Of a stretch of 11,115 nucleotides of DNA, positions 2,077-11,115 are shown piece by piece. Both the position numbers and the translations under genes were made by a program. The notes under the pieces are model-generated. The model saw only the letters and a list, made by a program, of their open reading frames with translations. It was not told where the DNA came from and searched no databases. Within the stretch, counting starts at the first letter, position 1, and every line of letters begins with the position of its first letter. Where the stretch lies: NCBI GenBank assembly GCA_041623475.1, contig JBFJWU010000083.1, forward strand, positions 1 to 11,115, read 5' to 3'. Source of the stretch: JBFJWU01 sp041623475 [NCBI: bacterium]. GTDB lineage: Bacteria > J088.

Positions 2077-2742
2077 ATGGACCCCATCCTGAACGACATC
2101 GAAGCGCGGATCATCGGTTGCCTGATCGAGAAAGACCGGACAACGCCGGACCATTATCCGCTCAGCCTGAACGCACTGACCAACGCCTGCAACCAGAAAT
2201 CCAACCGCGACCCCGTCATGGACCTGGACGAGCAGACCGTCCAGCGCGCACTGGACCAGTTGCGCCCCCGGGGGTTCGTTGTGACCAGCGTCGGCAGCGG
2301 CAGCCGCGTCGAAAAATACAGACACCTGCTGCCGGAGAAGCTGGACCTGCTGGCGGACCAGACGGCAATCCTGTGTGAACTGATGCTGCGTGGCCCCCAG
2401 ACGGTCGGCGAACTGCGAACGCGCTGCCAACGGCTGCACGAATTCCGGGACATCGATGACGTCGCAGACACGCTGGCGATGCTGGCGGGATTGTCCCAGC
2501 CAATGGTTCAGGAACTGCCCCGCCTGCCAGGACAGAAGGAACCACGCTGGGCGCAACTGCTGACGGGGCCGGTTGACCTGGAGTCACTGCAACAGGCTGC
2601 GGCCGCCGCCGGCCCGGCGCGCGCCGCGATTGTCAGCGAAAACCAGCGCATCGATGTGCTGGAAAGCCGCATCGACGAACTGACCGCCGAACTGGAGGAC
2701 CTGAAGTCCGAATTCACACGGTTCCGCGAACAATTCGAATAG
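2077..2742 (+). CDS. yceH: YceH family protein (DUF480, UPF0502)
   Basis: This 221-residue protein is recognised as the YceH / DUF480 family by its N-terminal run EARIIGCLIEKDRTTPDHYP (about 9-28), SLNALTNACNQKSNRDPV (about 29-46), and the region ending in SRVEKYRHLLPEKL. The family fold is two winged-helix domains, suggesting nucleic-acid binding or regulation, but its biochemical role is not firmly established. The C-terminal 35 or so residues are predicted coiled coil (heptad-like, from about 185 to the end), as in other members. ATG at 2077 follows GGAG at 2063-2066, a slightly long 10-nt spacer. It sits 34 bp after nth. A perfect hairpin overlaps its stop codon and may end the nth-yceH transcript. 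Confidence 0.92.
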   Translation: MDPILNDIEARIIGCLIEKDRTTPDHYPLSLNALTNACNQKSNRDPVMDLDEQTVQRALDQLRPRGFVVTSVGSGSRVEKYRHLLPEKLDLLADQTAILCELMLRGPQTVGELRTRCQRLHEFRDIDDVADTLAMLAGLSQPMVQELPRLPGQKEPRWAQLLTGPVDLESLQQAAAAAGPARAAIVSENQRIDVLESRIDELTAELEDLKSEFTRFREQFE

Positions 2743-5661: not shown

Positions 5662-6942
5662 TCAGAAAATCAAAAACACCGCCGAGATCACGACCCCGCT
5701 GACAACCAGGATCTTCCAGCTGACCTGCAGCAGGTCCTGGGCCCGGACACCGGTCAGCGCCAGCATCGGCAACGCCCAGAACGGCTGGATCAGGTTGGTC
5801 CAGGCATCGCCCCAGGCAAAATAGATAATCATCTTTTCAATCGGCACGCCGACGGCTGTGGCCGCCTGCGCCAGGATCGGTCCCTGGACCGCCCACTGTC
5901 CGCCACCGCTGGGGACCACCACATTCAGCAGTCCGGCAGACAGGAACGCCGCCAGCGGAAACAGTTGCGCGGACACACCATTGACGATTGATTCGGACAG
6001 GAAGACGGCGATTCCTGTTGACTTCATCACGCCCATAATCGCGCCATACAGCGGAAACTGGATCGCAATGCCCACTGTTCCCACCAGTCCCTCGCGGACC
6101 CCGGCCTGGAACCGGCCAATATTCTGCTGGACCATCAGCGCCAGCGCGAACAGCGCCAGGATCACAAAGTTCAGGTTAAAGCCCTGGATGCCGCGAATCC
6201 ACGCCAGGACCAGGACAATCAGCACCCCGCCACCAATCCAGACACCGTGGGCCGGACCGTCCTCGGGCGTCTCGACCAGCGTTGGCTCGTCGGCCAATGG
6301 ATTGGGACGTGCGACTTCGGGAACCTTGGCCACCGCTACGTAGATGGCGACCGCGAGCGTCGCAAAAACCAGTGTTGCCAGGTTCAACGGCGAAAAGATC
6401 GTGGCACTGACTGGAATCACGCCGGTAATATCAACCAGGAAATGGCTGGGCGTCGCCACAACCAGCGGCGCCGAACCGCTTAATCCACCGTGCCAGCTGA
6501 TAAACCCGGCGTACGCTGCCGCGGCATAGCGCACCGATGCGGTCCGGTCATCGTCGCGGCTGCTGCTGGCGGTGCGGGCAATTAACCCGCCGGCAACCAG
6601 TCCCAGTCCCCAATGGAGCCAGGCGAACCCTGATGTAAATACCGCGACCCAGAATGCCGGGTAGCGGCGGTCCGTGATCCAGCCGGCGATCCACTGCAGG
6701 ATCCGCAGGACCAGCGGCGATGTCGCAAACGCGTGCCCCAGGGCCAGCATCAGGATCATCTGCATGGCAAAACCAAACAACCCGGTAAAGCCGGTCACCC
6801 AGCCCTTGATGACCGCATCCGGCCCGCCCGATTCCGGGAACAGACCCAGAACCGCCACGATCACGTTCAGCAAAATGGCCAGATGAAAGGGATCAAACAG
6901 ATCCCGGATGCCGAACTTACGTGGCACCGTTTTCCAGTTCAC
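5662..6942 (-). CDS. atoE: AtoE-type short-chain fatty acid transporter
   Basis: This 426-residue polytopic inner-membrane protein belongs to the short-chain fatty acid transporter family (AtoE, PF02667), which in E. coli is linked to uptake of acetoacetate and butyrate-type acids. Family landmarks are GFAMQM and LALGHA (57-71), FAWLHWGLGLVAGG (106-119), FISWHGGLSGSAPL (147-160), VVPSGGGQWAVQGP (342-355) and QPFWALP (386-392), with about ten or more hydrophobic segments. Length is close to the E. coli protein. The longest start is GTG at 6942, lying 26 nt inside the 3' end of meaB. A second GTG five codons further in, preceded by GGAAAA, is an alternative. Overlap with meaB suggests one transcript with the B12-mutase genes and a role in importing the acid that enters that pathway, which is inference. 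Confidence 0.92.
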   Translation of the reverse strand: MNWKTVPRKFGIRDLFDPFHLAILLNVIVAVLGLFPESGGPDAVIKGWVTGFTGLFGFAMQMILMLALGHAFATSPLVLRILQWIAGWITDRRYPAFWVAVFTSGFAWLHWGLGLVAGGLIARTASSSRDDDRTASVRYAAAAYAGFISWHGGLSGSAPLVVATPSHFLVDITGVIPVSATIFSPLNLATLVFATLAVAIYVAVAKVPEVARPNPLADEPTLVETPEDGPAHGVWIGGGVLIVLVLAWIRGIQGFNLNFVILALFALALMVQQNIGRFQAGVREGLVGTVGIAIQFPLYGAIMGVMKSTGIAVFLSESIVNGVSAQLFPLAAFLSAGLLNVVVPSGGGQWAVQGPILAQAATAVGVPIEKMIIYFAWGDAWTNLIQPFWALPMLALTGVRAQDLLQVSWKILVVSGVVISAVFLIF

Positions 6943-7879
6943 CCATCAGTGACGCGACAACCTGTTCGGCCGCAGTATACGGATCCAGCGGCTCACCCGA
7001 TTCGGGAAACATTTGCTCGATCAGCCCAAGCTCGCGGGTTCGGCGTTCAGCCAGGCCCAGCAGTTCTGCCTTGACCGACTCCCAATAGGTTGCCTCGACA
7101 GCTCGTTTCTGGCGCTTGGCCAGTTCGCCGCGATCGGCCATCCAGGCCTGGTGACCATCGATGAATTCCAGGAGTTCGTCAATACCCTCGTTGCGCAAGG
7201 CAACCGTCCGGGCCACCGGCGGCTTCCACCCATCCGGATCGACACCGCCCAGTTCGATCATCATGCGGATTTCCCGTTCAGACCGGTCGACACCGTCGCG
7301 ATCGGCCTTGTTCAGGACAAACACATCAGCGATTTCAAGGATTCCCGCCTTGATCGCCTGGATGTCATCGCCCATTCCCGGCACCAGGACCACCAGCGAC
7401 GTATGTGCCGTGCCGACGATATCCACCTCGTCCTGGCCAACACCGACCGTTTCAATGATCACGATGTCCTTGCCCATGGCATCCATCACGTGGACAACGT
7501 TCCGGGTTGACCGGCTCAGGCCGCCCAAGTTGCCCCGCGTCGCCAGCGATCGGACGAACACCCCGGGGTCCGCCTCGTGATCCTGCATCCGGATCCGGTC
7601 ACCCAGGATCGCGCCGCCGCTGAACGGGCTGGTTGGATCAATGGCGACAACCCCGACCGACTGGCCGCGGGCGCGAAACCCGGCGATCAATCGATTGGTC
7701 AGTGTGCTCTTGCCGCTGCCGGGACTGCCGGTAATGCCGATAATGCGTGCCCGCCCCGTCTGGGGATACAGCAGTTTGAGTTCATCGAATGCCTGCGGGA
7801 TCTCATCGTCCAGCAACCGCATCAACCGTGCCGCCGCGCGCGTCTCGCCCTTGAGGACCTGGTCCGCCAGGTTTCCCAT
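6917..7879 (-). CDS. meaB: MeaB/ArgK-family G3E GTPase, chaperone of a B12-dependent acyl-CoA mutase
   Basis: This 320-residue cytoplasmic GTPase belongs to the MeaB/ArgK (MMAA) family, which gates cobalamin loading and protects adenosylcobalamin-dependent mutases from inactivation. Visible motifs are the P-loop GSPGSGKST (51-59, K57), VVAIDPTSPFSGGAILGDR (77-95), the Mg/switch region IIETVGVGQDEVD (141-153), and the guanine-specificity motif NKAD (190-193). The C-terminal helical arm (about 245-320) used for dimerisation is present. Length is typical. ATG at 7879 has only weak Shine-Dalgarno character. The gene lies 46 bp after the B12-binding subunit on the same strand, the classic pairing that supports mutase maintenance over an arginine-transport role. 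Its last 26 nt overlap the start of the atoE-like gene. Confidence 0.96.
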   Translation of the reverse strand: MGNLADQVLKGETRAAARLMRLLDDEIPQAFDELKLLYPQTGRARIIGITGSPGSGKSTLTNRLIAGFRARGQSVGVVAIDPTSPFSGGAILGDRIRMQDHEADPGVFVRSLATRGNLGGLSRSTRNVVHVMDAMGKDIVIIETVGVGQDEVDIVGTAHTSLVVLVPGMGDDIQAIKAGILEIADVFVLNKADRDGVDRSEREIRMMIELGGVDPDGWKPPVARTVALRNEGIDELLEFIDGHQAWMADRGELAKRQKRAVEATYWESVKAELLGLAERRTRELGLIEQMFPESGEPLDPYTAAEQVVASLMGELENGAT

Positions 7880-7925
7880 CAGGCTTGCTGCGCGTCAGGG
7901 GCGATTTGATTGCAATCGCAGGGGG

Positions 7926-8342
7926 TCAAATGTCCAGGCTGCGGGGCTGGACGTTTTCGCGGACCCAGGAAATAATGTCCTCGGTGCTGGTTCCCGGCGT
8001 AAAAATGCGGGCGACGCCCGAGCCTTCCAGCTCACCCTTGTCGTTTTCGGGGATGATACCGCCGCCGAACAGGGCCACGTCTTCAACGCCCTGGGCCTTG
8101 AGCTGCTCCATAATCTCGGGGAAATACGTCATATGGGCACCCGACAGGATCGACAGGCCAACAGCATCGACATCCTCTTCGATAGCCGAGTTAACAATCG
8201 ATTCAGCGGTCTGGTGCAGACCCGTGTAGATGACCTCGAAACCCGCATCGCGCAGTGCCCGGGCAACAATCTTTGCACCACGGTCATGGCCATCCAGGCC
8301 AGGTTTGGCCACAAGAATTCTAAGTTTACGTTCGTCGCTCAC
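7926..8342 (-). CDS. Stand-alone B12-binding (small) subunit of an acyl-CoA mutase
   Basis: This 138-residue protein is a lone cobalamin-binding domain, as found in split methylmalonyl-CoA, isobutyryl-CoA and 2-hydroxyisobutyryl-CoA mutases. It carries the base-off signature DGHDRG (D17-x-H19-xx-G22, where H19 binds cobalt), the S64-x-L66 element in SILSGAHMT, and the glycine motif FGGGIIP (92-98). The protein ends soon after the domain and there is no fused catalytic barrel, so a large subunit must be encoded elsewhere. The start is GTG at 8342 with a strong GGAGG (8349-8353) and a 6-nt spacer. MeaB follows directly. Which acyl-CoA is rearranged cannot be decided from this subunit; methylmalonyl-CoA (propionate route) is the default guess. 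Confidence 0.92.
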
Positions 8343-8463: not shown

Positions 8464-9780
8464 TCAGGAATCGCCCAGGGCCAGTTGGGGATCATCATCG
8501 TCACTGGCCTGCTCAACCAGCTCGGCGGGCAGTTGCTTGTCGGTCTTGACGCCCAGTTCGCGCAGCATTTCTGCCTGGCGGATCACATTGCCCCGGCCGG
8601 TACTAAGTCGCTTCATGGCTTCGTCATAGCTGTCCCGGGCCCGATCCAGCTTGTCGCCGACGTCCGACAGGGACTCGACGAACAGGTTCAGTTTCTTGTA
8701 CAGTTCCGCTGCCCGTTCGGCGATCTTTTCGGCGTTCCGGCCCTGGTCATCCAGCCGCCAGAGGTTTTCGACGACGCGCAGGACCGTGTGCAGGGTTGTC
8801 GGACTGACAATGGCGATCTTTTTTGCCAGGGCATCGGCAAACAGGTCGGGCGCATTCTGTGCCGCAAGGATCATCGCCGGCTCGACCGGCACAAACATCA
8901 GGACCATGTCCAGGGACTTCAGGCCCTCCAGTTCGTCATACCGTTTGTCGGCCAGTGTCTTGACGTGGGCCCGCATCGAGCTGATGTGGGCCTTGAGCGC
9001 GTCGGCGCGCCCTGCGTCGTCTTCGTCCGGGTCGGTCGCGCGGACGTAGTCAACCAGCGACAGTTTGGCGTCGATAATGACATCCTTGCCGTCGGGAAGG
9101 TGGACAACGACATCCGGGCGATAGGCCTTGCCGTCACGGGTCTTCAGCTGGACTTCGGTGTCGAATTCACGGCCCTCGGTCAGGCCCGATGACTCCAGCA
9201 CGCGTTTCAACGTCGCCTCGCCCCAGTTGCCGCGCATCTTGCTGTCGCCCTTGAGCGCCTGGGTCAGGTGCTGGGCCTCGGCGGTCATATGTTCGTTCAG
9301 TTCCTTGAGCGACTTGACCTGCTCCAAGAGCGAGGTCCGTTCTTTGGCCTCGTTGACATAGACTTCCTCGACCTTTTGCTTGAAGTCCGTAATCTGCGTT
9401 TTCAACGGATTCAGCAGGTTGCCCAGTTGTTCTTCGTTCTGCTTTTTGAATTTGCCGGCCTTGTCATCAAAAATTCGATTCGCCAGGTTTTCGAACTCTG
9501 TGGCCAGGGCCTTGCGGGCCTCTTTCAGTTCTTCCAGTTTCTCAGCATTGGCCGCGGCTTCAGTGTCCCGTTGTGTCTCCAGCCGCGCGGCCGTCACACG
9601 CAGTTCTTCAATCTGCTGACGCAGTTCGACGGATTCGGCCTCAAGGTCCGGAATGCGGCTGGCCTGCTGGCGCAGGGCTGATTCGTGCCCGCGGCGGGCA
9701 AAGAACACCGCCGCGCCGCCCAGGATTGCACCGGCGATGACGGCAAAAATGATCATTAATTCGGACATTGCACCGTCCAT
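8464..9780 (-). CDS. rmuC: RmuC family DNA recombination protein
   Basis: RmuC proteins limit recombination at inverted repeats and carry a nuclease-like core, although the reaction is poorly known. This 438-residue protein has an N-terminal membrane anchor (about 8-27), a long coiled coil (about 35-175), and the RmuC core from NWGEATLKRVLESSGL (185-200) on. The PD-(D/E)XK-like strand region RPDVVVHLPDGKDVIIDAK (221-239) provides D223, D237 and K239, followed by MFVPVEPAMILAA. Length and order are typical. The longest start is ATG at 9780. An ATG four codons further in (9768) is equally likely, since it sits about 10 nt after a -10-like CATAAT and places the anchor closer to the N-terminus. 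The gene is divergent from the MDR gene and separated from the downstream mutase genes by 121 bp that contain a possible promoter. Confidence 0.95.
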   Translation of the reverse strand: MDGAMSELMIIFAVIAGAILGGAAVFFARRGHESALRQQASRIPDLEAESVELRQQIEELRVTAARLETQRDTEAAANAEKLEELKEARKALATEFENLANRIFDDKAGKFKKQNEEQLGNLLNPLKTQITDFKQKVEEVYVNEAKERTSLLEQVKSLKELNEHMTAEAQHLTQALKGDSKMRGNWGEATLKRVLESSGLTEGREFDTEVQLKTRDGKAYRPDVVVHLPDGKDVIIDAKLSLVDYVRATDPDEDDAGRADALKAHISSMRAHVKTLADKRYDELEGLKSLDMVLMFVPVEPAMILAAQNAPDLFADALAKKIAIVSPTTLHTVLRVVENLWRLDDQGRNAEKIAERAAELYKKLNLFVESLSDVGDKLDRARDSYDEAMKRLSTGRGNVIRQAEMLRELGVKTDKQLPAELVEQASDDDDPQLALGDS

Positions 9781-9826
9781 TATGGCATGTCACGACAGCT
9801 GCCCGGTCGGACCTGTGACATAATGG
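9777..9826. promoter_or_regulatory. Inverted repeat in the rmuC / quinone reductase divergent gap
   Basis: The right arm GTGACATAATGG (9815-9826) is matched on the left by CCATTATG (9777-9784) and TCAC (9790-9793), with five extra bases inserted between those two blocks. Each arm carries a CATAAT -10-like hexamer facing outward (9779-9784 minus, 9819-9824 plus). The gap is only 52 bp, so both genes probably share this control region. No -35 hexamer is convincing on either side, which would fit activator-dependent or overlapping promoters. Confidence 0.4.
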
Positions 9827-9832
9827 GCAGCC

Positions 9833-10855
9833 ATGAAAGCTGCACGGATACACAGGTACGGTGGTCCCGAAGAATTCCGCATTGACGAGGTGCCGGTTCC
9901 CCCTGTTGGGCCGCTGGACATCCGCGTCGCCAACCGCGCCGCCGCCGTCAATCCGGTTGATTTCAAGGTTCGCGGCGGCTACCAGAAGTTGTTTATGTGG
10001 TACCGCCTGCCCTGGATCCTGGGAATGGACTGCGCCGGTATCGTCGACGCAGTCGGTCCCGAGGTAACCCGGTTCCAGCCGGGGGATGCCGTTTACGCGT
10101 CGCCCCACCACCGGCGCCCGGGAACCTATGCCGAATATTCAGTGATGCACGAACGCGAGGCTGCGCTGATGCCGGAAGGCGTGACATTTGCCGAGGCCGC
10201 CGGCATTCCCCTGGCTGGCCTGACCGCGTGGCACGGCATTGTCGTCAAGGGACGTATCGGGCCGGGACAGCGGCTGTTTGTCCCCGCCGGGTCCGGCGGG
10301 GTCGGCACGCTGGCGATCCAGATCGCCAAAGCCCACGGTGCCTGGGTCGCCACCAGCTGTAGCAGCCGGAATATCGAACTGGTGCAGACACTGGGCGCTG
10401 ACCTGGTTGTGGATTATACGTGCGAGTCAATTCCGGACAGGATTAGCGAACCTGTTGACCTGGTTTTCGACACGATGGGGCAGTCCCATCGCGACGACCA
10501 GTTGGCGATATTGAAACGAGGCGGTCGCCTGGTCAGCATTGCGACCGAGATCCCCGACCTGGTCAAACGTTACGGCCACGTCGGCGGTACACTGGCCGGC
10601 GCGCTGGAAATGGTCAGTTGGCCGGTCCTGTCGCGGACCCGTCGCGGCGTCAAAGGGTCCAACATCGTCCGCCCACCGGACGGCAACATGCTGGCCCAGA
10701 TCACGGACCTGGTCGAGGCCGGCAAGGTCAAACCCGTTGTGGACAGGATCTTTCCGCTGGCCGAAATCGCCGACGCCCATCGCTACAGCGAAACCGGTCG
10801 CGCCCGCGGCAAGATCATCATCGACATCGACGGCCAGGCCCAGACAACCCCGTAG
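9833..10855 (+). CDS. Zinc-free medium-chain reductase (NADPH:quinone oxidoreductase-like)
   Basis: This 340-residue cytoplasmic oxidoreductase belongs to the quinone oxidoreductase branch of the medium-chain dehydrogenase/reductase (MDR) family, which uses NADPH to reduce quinones or enones. The N-terminal GroES-like domain includes AAVNPVDFKVRGGY (37-50) and LGMDCAGIVDAVG (63-75). The catalytic-zinc GHE signature is replaced by GMD and the structural-zinc cysteines are absent, so it should not bind zinc. The Rossmann domain has the nucleotide motif GSGGVG (153-158) and a LKRGGRLV strand-turn, and ends in AHRYSETGRARGKIII. Length is typical. ATG at 9833 lacks a Shine-Dalgarno sequence but has CATAAT ending 8 nt before it. 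It is divergent from rmuC, and the tandem repeat array begins 43 bp after its stop. The substrate is not predictable. Confidence 0.92.
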   Translation: MKAARIHRYGGPEEFRIDEVPVPPVGPLDIRVANRAAAVNPVDFKVRGGYQKLFMWYRLPWILGMDCAGIVDAVGPEVTRFQPGDAVYASPHHRRPGTYAEYSVMHEREAALMPEGVTFAEAAGIPLAGLTAWHGIVVKGRIGPGQRLFVPAGSGGVGTLAIQIAKAHGAWVATSCSSRNIELVQTLGADLVVDYTCESIPDRISEPVDLVFDTMGQSHRDDQLAILKRGGRLVSIATEIPDLVKRYGHVGGTLAGALEMVSWPVLSRTRRGVKGSNIVRPPDGNMLAQITDLVEAGKVKPVVDRIFPLAEIADAHRYSETGRARGKIIIDIDGQAQTTP

Positions 10856-10895
10856 CTCAACACCTGGTGCCGAAAAAGAAAGCGCGACCCGTCAT

Positions 10896-11115
10896 ATGCG
10901 ACAAGGCGGGCAGATTTGCGTGAGATGTGGTGATGACCGCAGCGAAGACGCCGCAGCAATAGCAGCGCTATTGCGAGGACGGCGGAGCGAGGACAGCGCC
11001 GCAGATTGCGTAAAGCTGCGGGCCGCTAGCCGACAAGGCGGGCAGATTTGCGTGAGATGTGGTGATGACCGCAGCGAAGACGCCGCAGCAATAGCAGCGC
11101 TATTGCGAGGACGGC
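10896..11115 (+). CDS. Possible repeat-protein ORF through the tandem array (open at right edge)
   Basis: An ATG at 10896, directly at the array border, opens a frame that stays free of stops to the window end (73 codons). Because 132 is a multiple of three, each DNA unit would give the same 44-residue peptide, with QICVRCGDD, RSEDAAAIAALLRG and RSEDSAADCVKLRAAS segments and three cysteines, two of them as CxxC. No Shine-Dalgarno sequence precedes the ATG and no known family is recognised. The opposite strand is also open through the repeat, so an open frame here is weak evidence for a gene. It may equally be untranslated repeat DNA. Confidence 0.2.
   Translation, partial: MRQGGQICVRCGDDRSEDAAAIAALLRGRRSEDSAADCVKLRAASRQGGQICVRCGDDRSEDAAAIAALLRGR
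10956..10974. repeat. Hairpin inside repeat unit 1
   Basis: GCAATAGC and GCTATTGC form a perfect 8-bp stem with a 3-nt AGC loop. An outer helix is possible between CGCCG (10949-10953) and CGGCG (10980-10984), across an internal loop of CA opposite GAGGA. The structure could form in DNA or RNA. Confidence 0.75.
11088..11106. repeat. Hairpin inside repeat unit 2
   Basis: This is the same 8-bp stem and 3-nt loop, exactly 132 bp after the first copy. The left outer CGCCG arm is also present. The right outer arm is cut by the window end. Confidence 0.75.

What the first reader, a model, noticed from the sequence alone, without database searches (positions are those of the whole stretch)
10899..11115. 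Exact 132-bp tandem repeat array beginning 43 bp after the quinone reductase gene
The second copy matches the first over all 85 visible bases, with no divergence. Such identity between long units implies recent expansion, ongoing homogenisation or strong constraint. No transposase or CRISPR feature explains it, and rmuC, a gene tied to recombination at repeats, lies just 1 kb away (probably chance). The array is cut by the window, so its size and right-hand neighbour are unknown.
Basis: seen in the sequence. Interest (0 to 1): 0.7.

Follow-up and report, generated by a model that had tools for sequence, protein, structure and literature searches.

The report
Tandem hairpin repeat of mobile type
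The repeated 132-base stretch is one long folded-back hairpin whose tip matches a family of short mobile DNA elements scattered through several bacteria, and at least the start of a second exact copy sits beside it.

Summary
In detail: window 10899-11030 is followed by an exact copy that runs 85 bases to the window end. Only 1.64 copies are visible, so 'array' is an extrapolation. Each unit is one long imperfect hairpin (+ strand RNA -61.2 kcal/mol, z -4.5) without an Rfam match. Its tip matches the core of a mostly intergenic hairpin family found here in Comamonas, Cupriavidus, Variovorax, Mitsuaria, Pseudoalteromonas, Catenovulum, Halomonas, Pseudomonas, Azotobacter and one Bacillota plasmid. 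A covariance model built without the window, and without the four loci picked directly by similarity to it, finds both units (25.1 bits, E 1.4e-5) and nothing else comparable in the window. The core covaries (93% of cells paired, 67% in shuffles). In Pseudoalteromonas it sits inside clear MITEs with terminal inverted repeats and 4-5 bp target duplications, one exactly duplicated in tandem. Best reading: a MITE-like hairpin duplicated in tandem. The window matches only the tip (33 nt); mobility and RNA function of this copy are inferred. Most novel: a covarying core shared by mobile shells with unrelated ends, perhaps including Neisseria Correia elements (suggestive only).

The parts
10899..11030 (+). 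first full 132-bp repeat unit; imperfect palindrome over nearly its whole length
   Evidence: lag-132 self match; unit positions 7-126 align with their own reverse complement, 61%; fold z -4.49 on + strand
11031..11115 (+). second copy, 85 bases, exact, cut by the window end
10905..11027 (+). hairpin: 45 pairs, outermost pair 10905-11027
10949..10981 (+). tip of the hairpin that matches positions 22-54 of the family core models
   Evidence: R1 31.1 bits E 2.3e-7; R2 25.1 bits E 1.4e-5; R3 27.3 bits
11081..11113 (+). the same tip in the second copy
9833..10855 (+). upstream gene: zinc-type NAD(P)H quinone oxidoreductase-like, same strand
   Evidence: Pfam ADH_N, ADH_zinc_N and ADH_zinc_N_2; TIGR02824 (PIG3 family) below its curated cut-off

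Best explanation
The 132-bp unit is a MITE-like, protein-less hairpin element. It is a diverged member of a hairpin family with the core AAGGC - stem - CGCAG - 8-bp tip stem - CGAGG or CAAG - stem - AACG..GC. It came to lie behind the quinone oxidoreductase gene and was then duplicated in tandem, most likely by replication slippage or unequal recombination, which a long hairpin promotes. Where transcription runs on from the gene, each unit would fold into a long stem that could stabilise, or be cut in, the 3' end of the message. Shown: the exact repeat, the predicted hairpin, the family match of the tip, the covariation of the family core, and, in Pseudoalteromonas, MITE ends with target duplications and one exact tandem duplication. 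Inferred: that the window copy itself was mobile, how it duplicated, and any RNA role.
For: Exact repeat. Whole-unit hairpin. At E up to 10, 31 plasmid records matched the unit; I opened 6 of these matches, all without an annotated feature under them: 4 of 6 proved to be one structural family with the tip in the middle of a long hairpin (L021, L022, L023, L026), 2 (L024, L025) looked like chance. Model R1 from 11 copies, window left out, finds both units at 31.1 bits, E 2.3e-7. R2 from 16 copies, also leaving out the 4 loci picked by window similarity, finds both at 25.1 bits, E 1.4e-5; the reverse strand (palindrome alone) scores 12.2 and the next other place in the window 6.4. Core covariation on A6: 93.1% of cells paired against 67.2% in shuffles, score 0.653 against 0.196, slid controls at most 0.139. 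16 and 18 matches in two Pseudoalteromonas chromids. Element ends AACCTGA/TCAGGTT with target duplications in 20 of 28 distinct readings: 17 of 4 bp, 3 of 5 bp. An exact 313-bp tandem duplication holding one element in a circular complete record.
Against: The window matches only model positions 22-54 of 76-79; its outer arms matched no other copy, and the AAGGC/AACGC boxes are not canonical there (GAAGAC and AGCGAGGAC). Terminal repeats and a target duplication cannot be tested without the right-hand end. The first four family members were chosen because they resemble the tip, so the R1 E-value is not independent, and R2's copies were reached through them; calibration was short. In plain identity the sense orientation beats antisense only modestly (higher in 16 of 19 rows, tied in 3). 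The count of pairs with changes on both sides is only somewhat above shuffles (17 of 22 against a mean of 13.7; 5 of 500 shuffles reach it). The core is not in every related record: none in 2.8 Mb of Cupriavidus campinensis, nor in the Allochromatium and Nitrosococcus plasmids. No close copy of the window unit was found in the plasmid, phage, viral or genome collections; one search asked for one exact long pattern only.
Confidence: 0.6

Rival explanations
1. An unrelated, lineage-private palindromic repeat (REP/BIME- or ERIC-like in kind) whose tip resembles the family by chance.
For: Only 33 nt match; arms differ; the tip is palindromic and the reverse strand alone reaches 12.2-14.5 bits.
Against: R2 E 1.4e-5 with the tip in register at the centre of a long hairpin, about 13 bits above the palindrome-only strand; top match among 36 sources, 310 kb.
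Confidence: 0.22
2. A tandem array of small structured RNA genes, kept identical by selection or conversion.
For: Strong + strand fold, z -4.49, against -1.97 on the - strand; in the family core G-U pairs outnumber A-C mispairs 22 to 4, or 15 to 3 without the outermost pair.
Against: No promoter-like or terminator-like site in 9600-11115 (a weak test, few expected by chance either); no Rfam match; elsewhere the core sits in mobile elements at many unrelated loci; over whole elements the strand lean is slight: 36 G-U to 31 A-C in 10 copies, 13 to 9 in 3 Pseudoalteromonas hairpins, 6 to 3 in the window.
Confidence: 0.1
3. Assembly effect: the contig walked once round a graph cycle and stopped, so the copy number is not real.
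For: The repeat runs to the very end of the window; the overlap of exactly 85 could be a k-mer length (inference, not tested; whether the window end is a contig end is not known).
Against: Even a cycle needs a real unit-to-unit junction, and that junction lies inside the window. Exact tandem duplication of such an element exists in a complete circular record.
Confidence: 0.1
4. A coding tandem repeat of 44 residues.
For: 132 is a multiple of 3; one + frame and one - frame are open through the unit.
Against: The listed ORF of that + frame starts at 10539, inside the quinone reductase gene in another frame; relatives of the tip lie mostly between ORFs and vary as paired stems.
Confidence: 0.03

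Closest known systems
Correia repeat enclosed elements (CREE/NEMIS), Neisseria MITEs
   Same: Short intergenic palindromic MITE that folds into a long hairpin; copies fetched here carry ACAAGGCG ... AACGC in the same order. Of 15 complete elements in 15 stretches, both of the two 105-106 bp forms are hit by R2 and R3 (18.2 and 11.9 bits; 18.1 and 11.4).
   Different: The Correia ends are absent from the repeat. The score is marginal (best E 0.0083-0.039), one of 12 long forms and neither the 69-bp form is hit, and two non-Correia places (L113 2190, L122 10584) score 10.9-11.6 bits as well.
Pseudoalteromonas 194-243-bp hairpin MITE (read here; no name known to me)
   Same: Tip and inner stem of the hairpin core; one exact tandem duplication.
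   Different: Outer arms and ends unrelated; the window matches the tip only.
ERIC / REP-BIME repeats
   Same: Intergenic imperfect palindromes; ERIC (RU-1) is of similar length, 127 bp (PMC2759123, abstract in the listing).
   Different: Not compared by sequence; that the core motifs differ is recalled.

Membership tests
Cross-lineage hairpin-core family (this work) | tip stem flanked by CGCAG and CGAGG/CAAG, within a long hairpin | tested here: met
   both units, model positions 22-54
Cross-lineage hairpin-core family (this work) | AAGGC and AACG..GC boxes below the inner stem | tested here: inconclusive
   window has GAAGAC / AGCGAGGAC; the local match stops before these boxes; AGAC variants occur in L079 and L128
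MITE | short, hairpin-forming, no convincing protein | tested here: met
MITE | terminal inverted repeats with target-site duplication | not testable with these tools
   right end of the repeat lies outside the window; no genome held
MITE | dispersed copies in the genome | not testable with these tools
   no genome held; no second locus in the window
Correia element (CREE) | Correia repeats TATAG[CT]GGATTAA... at the ends (PMC2649163, passages) | tested here: not met
   with up to 3 mismatches one match in the window, at 6480-6492, far from the repeat; 0.96 expected by chance
Integron attC site | core site GTTRRRY (recalled) | tested here: not met
   no GTT on either strand of the unit
Rfam RNA family | match to a curated model | tested here: not met
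   no match up to E 1 in the window; none in 8 other loci, all of them family loci
CRISPR array | short repeats with differing spacers | tested here: not met
   the 132-bp unit repeats head to tail as far as visible, without a spacer

The most novel reading that the evidence does not exclude
A single structured core, covarying as RNA, is carried by MITEs with unrelated ends in Gammaproteobacteria, Betaproteobacteria and at least one Bacillota, and may include the Correia elements. The core would then be the thing selected (a host- or transposase-recognised RNA or single-strand hairpin) that moves between transposon shells, and the window holds a diverged copy caught in tandem amplification.
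Probability: 0.3. Interest if true: 0.75.

Novelty: new variant of a known kind. Interest (0 to 1): 0.5.

Why it matters
MITEs are mostly thought of as relics of one insertion sequence (review PMC10969869, passages). A core whose base pairs are kept by compensatory change across genera, in elements with different ends, asks for a common partner. It would make the question of what Correia-type hairpins are for testable by comparison, and it gives a model that can look for such repeats in any genome. For the window alone the gain is modest: an exact repeat turns out to be a hairpin element.

Tried and rejected
Rfam: nothing. Direct DNA matches of the repeat in plasmids and phages at E 1e-5: nothing; phages at E 10: 18 records, none opened. 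Viral pattern scans: searches gave none; two searches gave 1 and 15 stretches, which I judged by eye to be chance, mostly coding-like matches. Genome-collection scans: one exact long pattern and RmuC (148 stretches matched a peptide pattern, none confirmed) gave nothing, so neither host taxon nor relatives could be fixed. The Comamonas copy in phages and in E. coli genomes: no match. Of the 6 opened plasmid hits, L024 and L025 were dropped as chance: no tip hairpin in register. In Azotobacter (L129) an IS630 and in Cupriavidus (L029) an IS481 transposase gene lies next to the hairpin; a scan for distant inverted repeats found none in L129 and in L029 one of 13 bases that brackets the IS481 gene, not the hairpin; no autonomous partner is named. 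Four copies lie beside acyl-CoA dehydrogenase genes (L022, L033, L128, L130); not tested against background. Integron attC, CRISPR and coding readings: see the tests. Literature (listings only unless said). 'Correia-like' and 'NEMIS-like' have no occurrence in the 20 papers shown of 34. PMC4853749 (passages) does call Thiomargarita MITEs most similar in structure to Correia elements. PMC2267715 (passages) finds a 46-bp core of the Neisseria element. I saw no paper that describes the cross-genus core; most subscription papers are not held, so absence in print is not shown.

Full report
Observation. The last 85 bases of the window repeat positions 10899-10983 exactly at a distance of 132. The unit starts 43 bases after the stop of the quinone oxidoreductase gene. 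Chance is excluded. Tandem Repeats Finder lists nothing, probably because fewer than two copies are visible. No whole genome is held for the window.

Anatomy of the unit. The unit is 64% G+C in a 60% window. It pairs with itself almost from end to end: positions 7-126 align with their own reverse complement at 61%, and the + strand folds as RNA into a single stem of 45 pairs, -61.2 kcal/mol, z -4.49 against shuffles. The - strand folds less well (z -1.97), and as DNA the z-scores are -2.20 and -1.47. A fold of the visible stretch, and of three units end to end, also allows pairing between neighbouring units, so single-unit hairpins need not be the only form. No Rfam family matches. No promoter- or terminator-like site was found in 9600-11115. 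One + frame and one - frame are open through the unit, without a plausible gene.

Relatives. Direct DNA searches gave nothing. A permissive search of plasmids listed 31 records. I opened 6 of the matches, all without an annotated feature under them: 4 of 6 (Comamonas L021, Cupriavidus L022 and L023, Subdoligranulum L026) hold the tip at the centre of a long hairpin; L024 and L025 do not. Searches with L021, L022 and L026 led on to Mitsuaria, Variovorax, further Cupriavidus, Pseudoalteromonas and Catenovulum. The model then found Halomonas, and the Halomonas copy led to Pseudomonas and Azotobacter.

Test of kinship. Model R1 came from 11 copies without the window; it hits both units at 31.1 bits, E 2.3e-7, next other place 8.9 bits. 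Since four seeds had been chosen by similarity to the window, R2 was built from 16 copies that leave these out: both units, 25.1 bits, E 1.4e-5, next other place 6.4 bits. R2's copies were still reached by way of those seeds. R3, 19 copies, window left out, three of the four seeds back (L021, L022, L026): 27.3 bits. Over 36 sources, 310 kb, the window is the top match. The match covers positions 22-54 only. I hold kinship of the tip likely, not certain.

The core is a covarying structure. On A6, 93.1% of 418 cells pair, against 67.2% in shuffles; score 0.653 against 0.196 in shuffles and at most 0.139 when slid; 17 of 22 pairs have a change on both sides, against a shuffled mean of 13.7, reached by 5 of 500. 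A6 was fitted to a model structure, which leans towards it; the MAFFT alignment A1, not so fitted, gave 12 of 22 such pairs under its own predicted structure. In A6, G-U cells outnumber A-C cells 22 to 4; without the outermost pair 15 to 3 (p 0.0075); in the two inner helices alone 9 to 2 (p 0.065). That leans towards RNA, but a structure predicted with G-U allowed is biased that way. Over whole elements the lean is slight (36 to 31 in 10 copies).

Mobility of the family. Two Pseudoalteromonas chromids hold 16 and 18 matches. Their element reads 194-197 or 242-243 bp, once 210, with ends AACCTGA/TCAGGTT. Of 34 loci examined for ends (L073-L104, L130, L131), 5 gave none by my pattern (L087, L088, L090, L096, L102), two repeated others, and the rest gave 28 distinct readings; two of these are neighbours in L077, 4 bases apart, and several are the same insertion in two strains. 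Target duplications are present in 20 of 28 (17 of 4 bp, 3 of 5 bp). One element with its flank is exactly duplicated in tandem, 313 bp, 2.0 copies. This is a precedent for what the window shows. Halomonas, Pseudomonas and Azotobacter copies start with another end, GGG(C/T)CTGTTGACG, and Cupriavidus with yet others. So the core is shared while the ends are not. In one search, 4 of 7 records matched (8 places, one of them the reverse strand of another); the 3 without a match are Allochromatium, Nitrosococcus and a 2.8-Mb Cupriavidus campinensis record. In one search, 9 of 9 matched (44 places), but each of these had supplied a copy. Of the 52 places, 38 came as loci; with a crude ORF caller 30 of 38 had no ORF of 100 aa or more over the core (one place is in twice).

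Correia elements. The published repeat pattern (PMC2649163, passages read) fetched 16 stretches from IMG/VR; 15 of the 16 were searched, and they hold 15 complete elements: 2 of 105-106 bp, 1 of 69 bp, 12 of 142-156 bp. R1 gave one weak match, on the 106-bp element of L116 (12.2 bits, E 0.76). R2 and R3 place that element next after the window (18.2 and 18.1 bits; E 0.039 and 0.0083), and hit the other short one, in L124, at 11.9 and 11.4. R3 also touches one of the 12 long ones (L115 2966-3002, 14.1 bits). Against this, two places that are not Correia elements score 10.9-11.6 bits (L113 2190, L122 10584) and L004 10.2-11.4. [quoted passage not shown] I call the link suggestive.

Mechanism. 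From the passages read, Correia transcripts can be cut by RNase III, and ERIC insertions at 3' ends of genes can change mRNA decay. A hairpin behind a gene on the same strand, as here, could act likewise; this is inference. Tandem copies by slippage or unequal exchange at a long hairpin is also inference, with the Pseudoalteromonas duplication as precedent.

Verdict. The repeat is real, and its unit is a hairpin of mobile-element type. The finding by itself is modest; the family behind it is the interesting part.

Noticed in passing
L083 320-945 (Pseudoalteromonas sp. NC201 plasmid pNC201, record 922600-923800): Exact 313-bp tandem duplication, two copies, that holds one hairpin element and flank, in a complete circular record.
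   Followed up: yes
L077 146-556: Two AACCTGA..TCAGGTT elements (210 and 196 bp readings) lie end to end, 4 bases apart.
   Followed up: no
L022, L033, L128, L130: Four hairpin copies in four genera lie next to acyl-CoA dehydrogenase genes; could be chance.
   Followed up: no
L109-L111 (Catenovulum) and Neisseria long Correia elements (L112, L115 and others): In both, the tip of the hairpin carries a long insert.
   Followed up: partly
L080, L083-L085, L098-L101, L103, L104 (Pseudoalteromonas): A longer form of the element (242-243 bp) carries an extra module just before the core.
   Followed up: no
window 2077-2742: DUF480 gene of unknown function directly after an endonuclease III gene.
   Followed up: no
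window 5662-8342, - strand: Short-chain fatty acid transporter, MeaB and a stand-alone methylmalonyl-CoA mutase C-terminal domain in a row.
   Followed up: no
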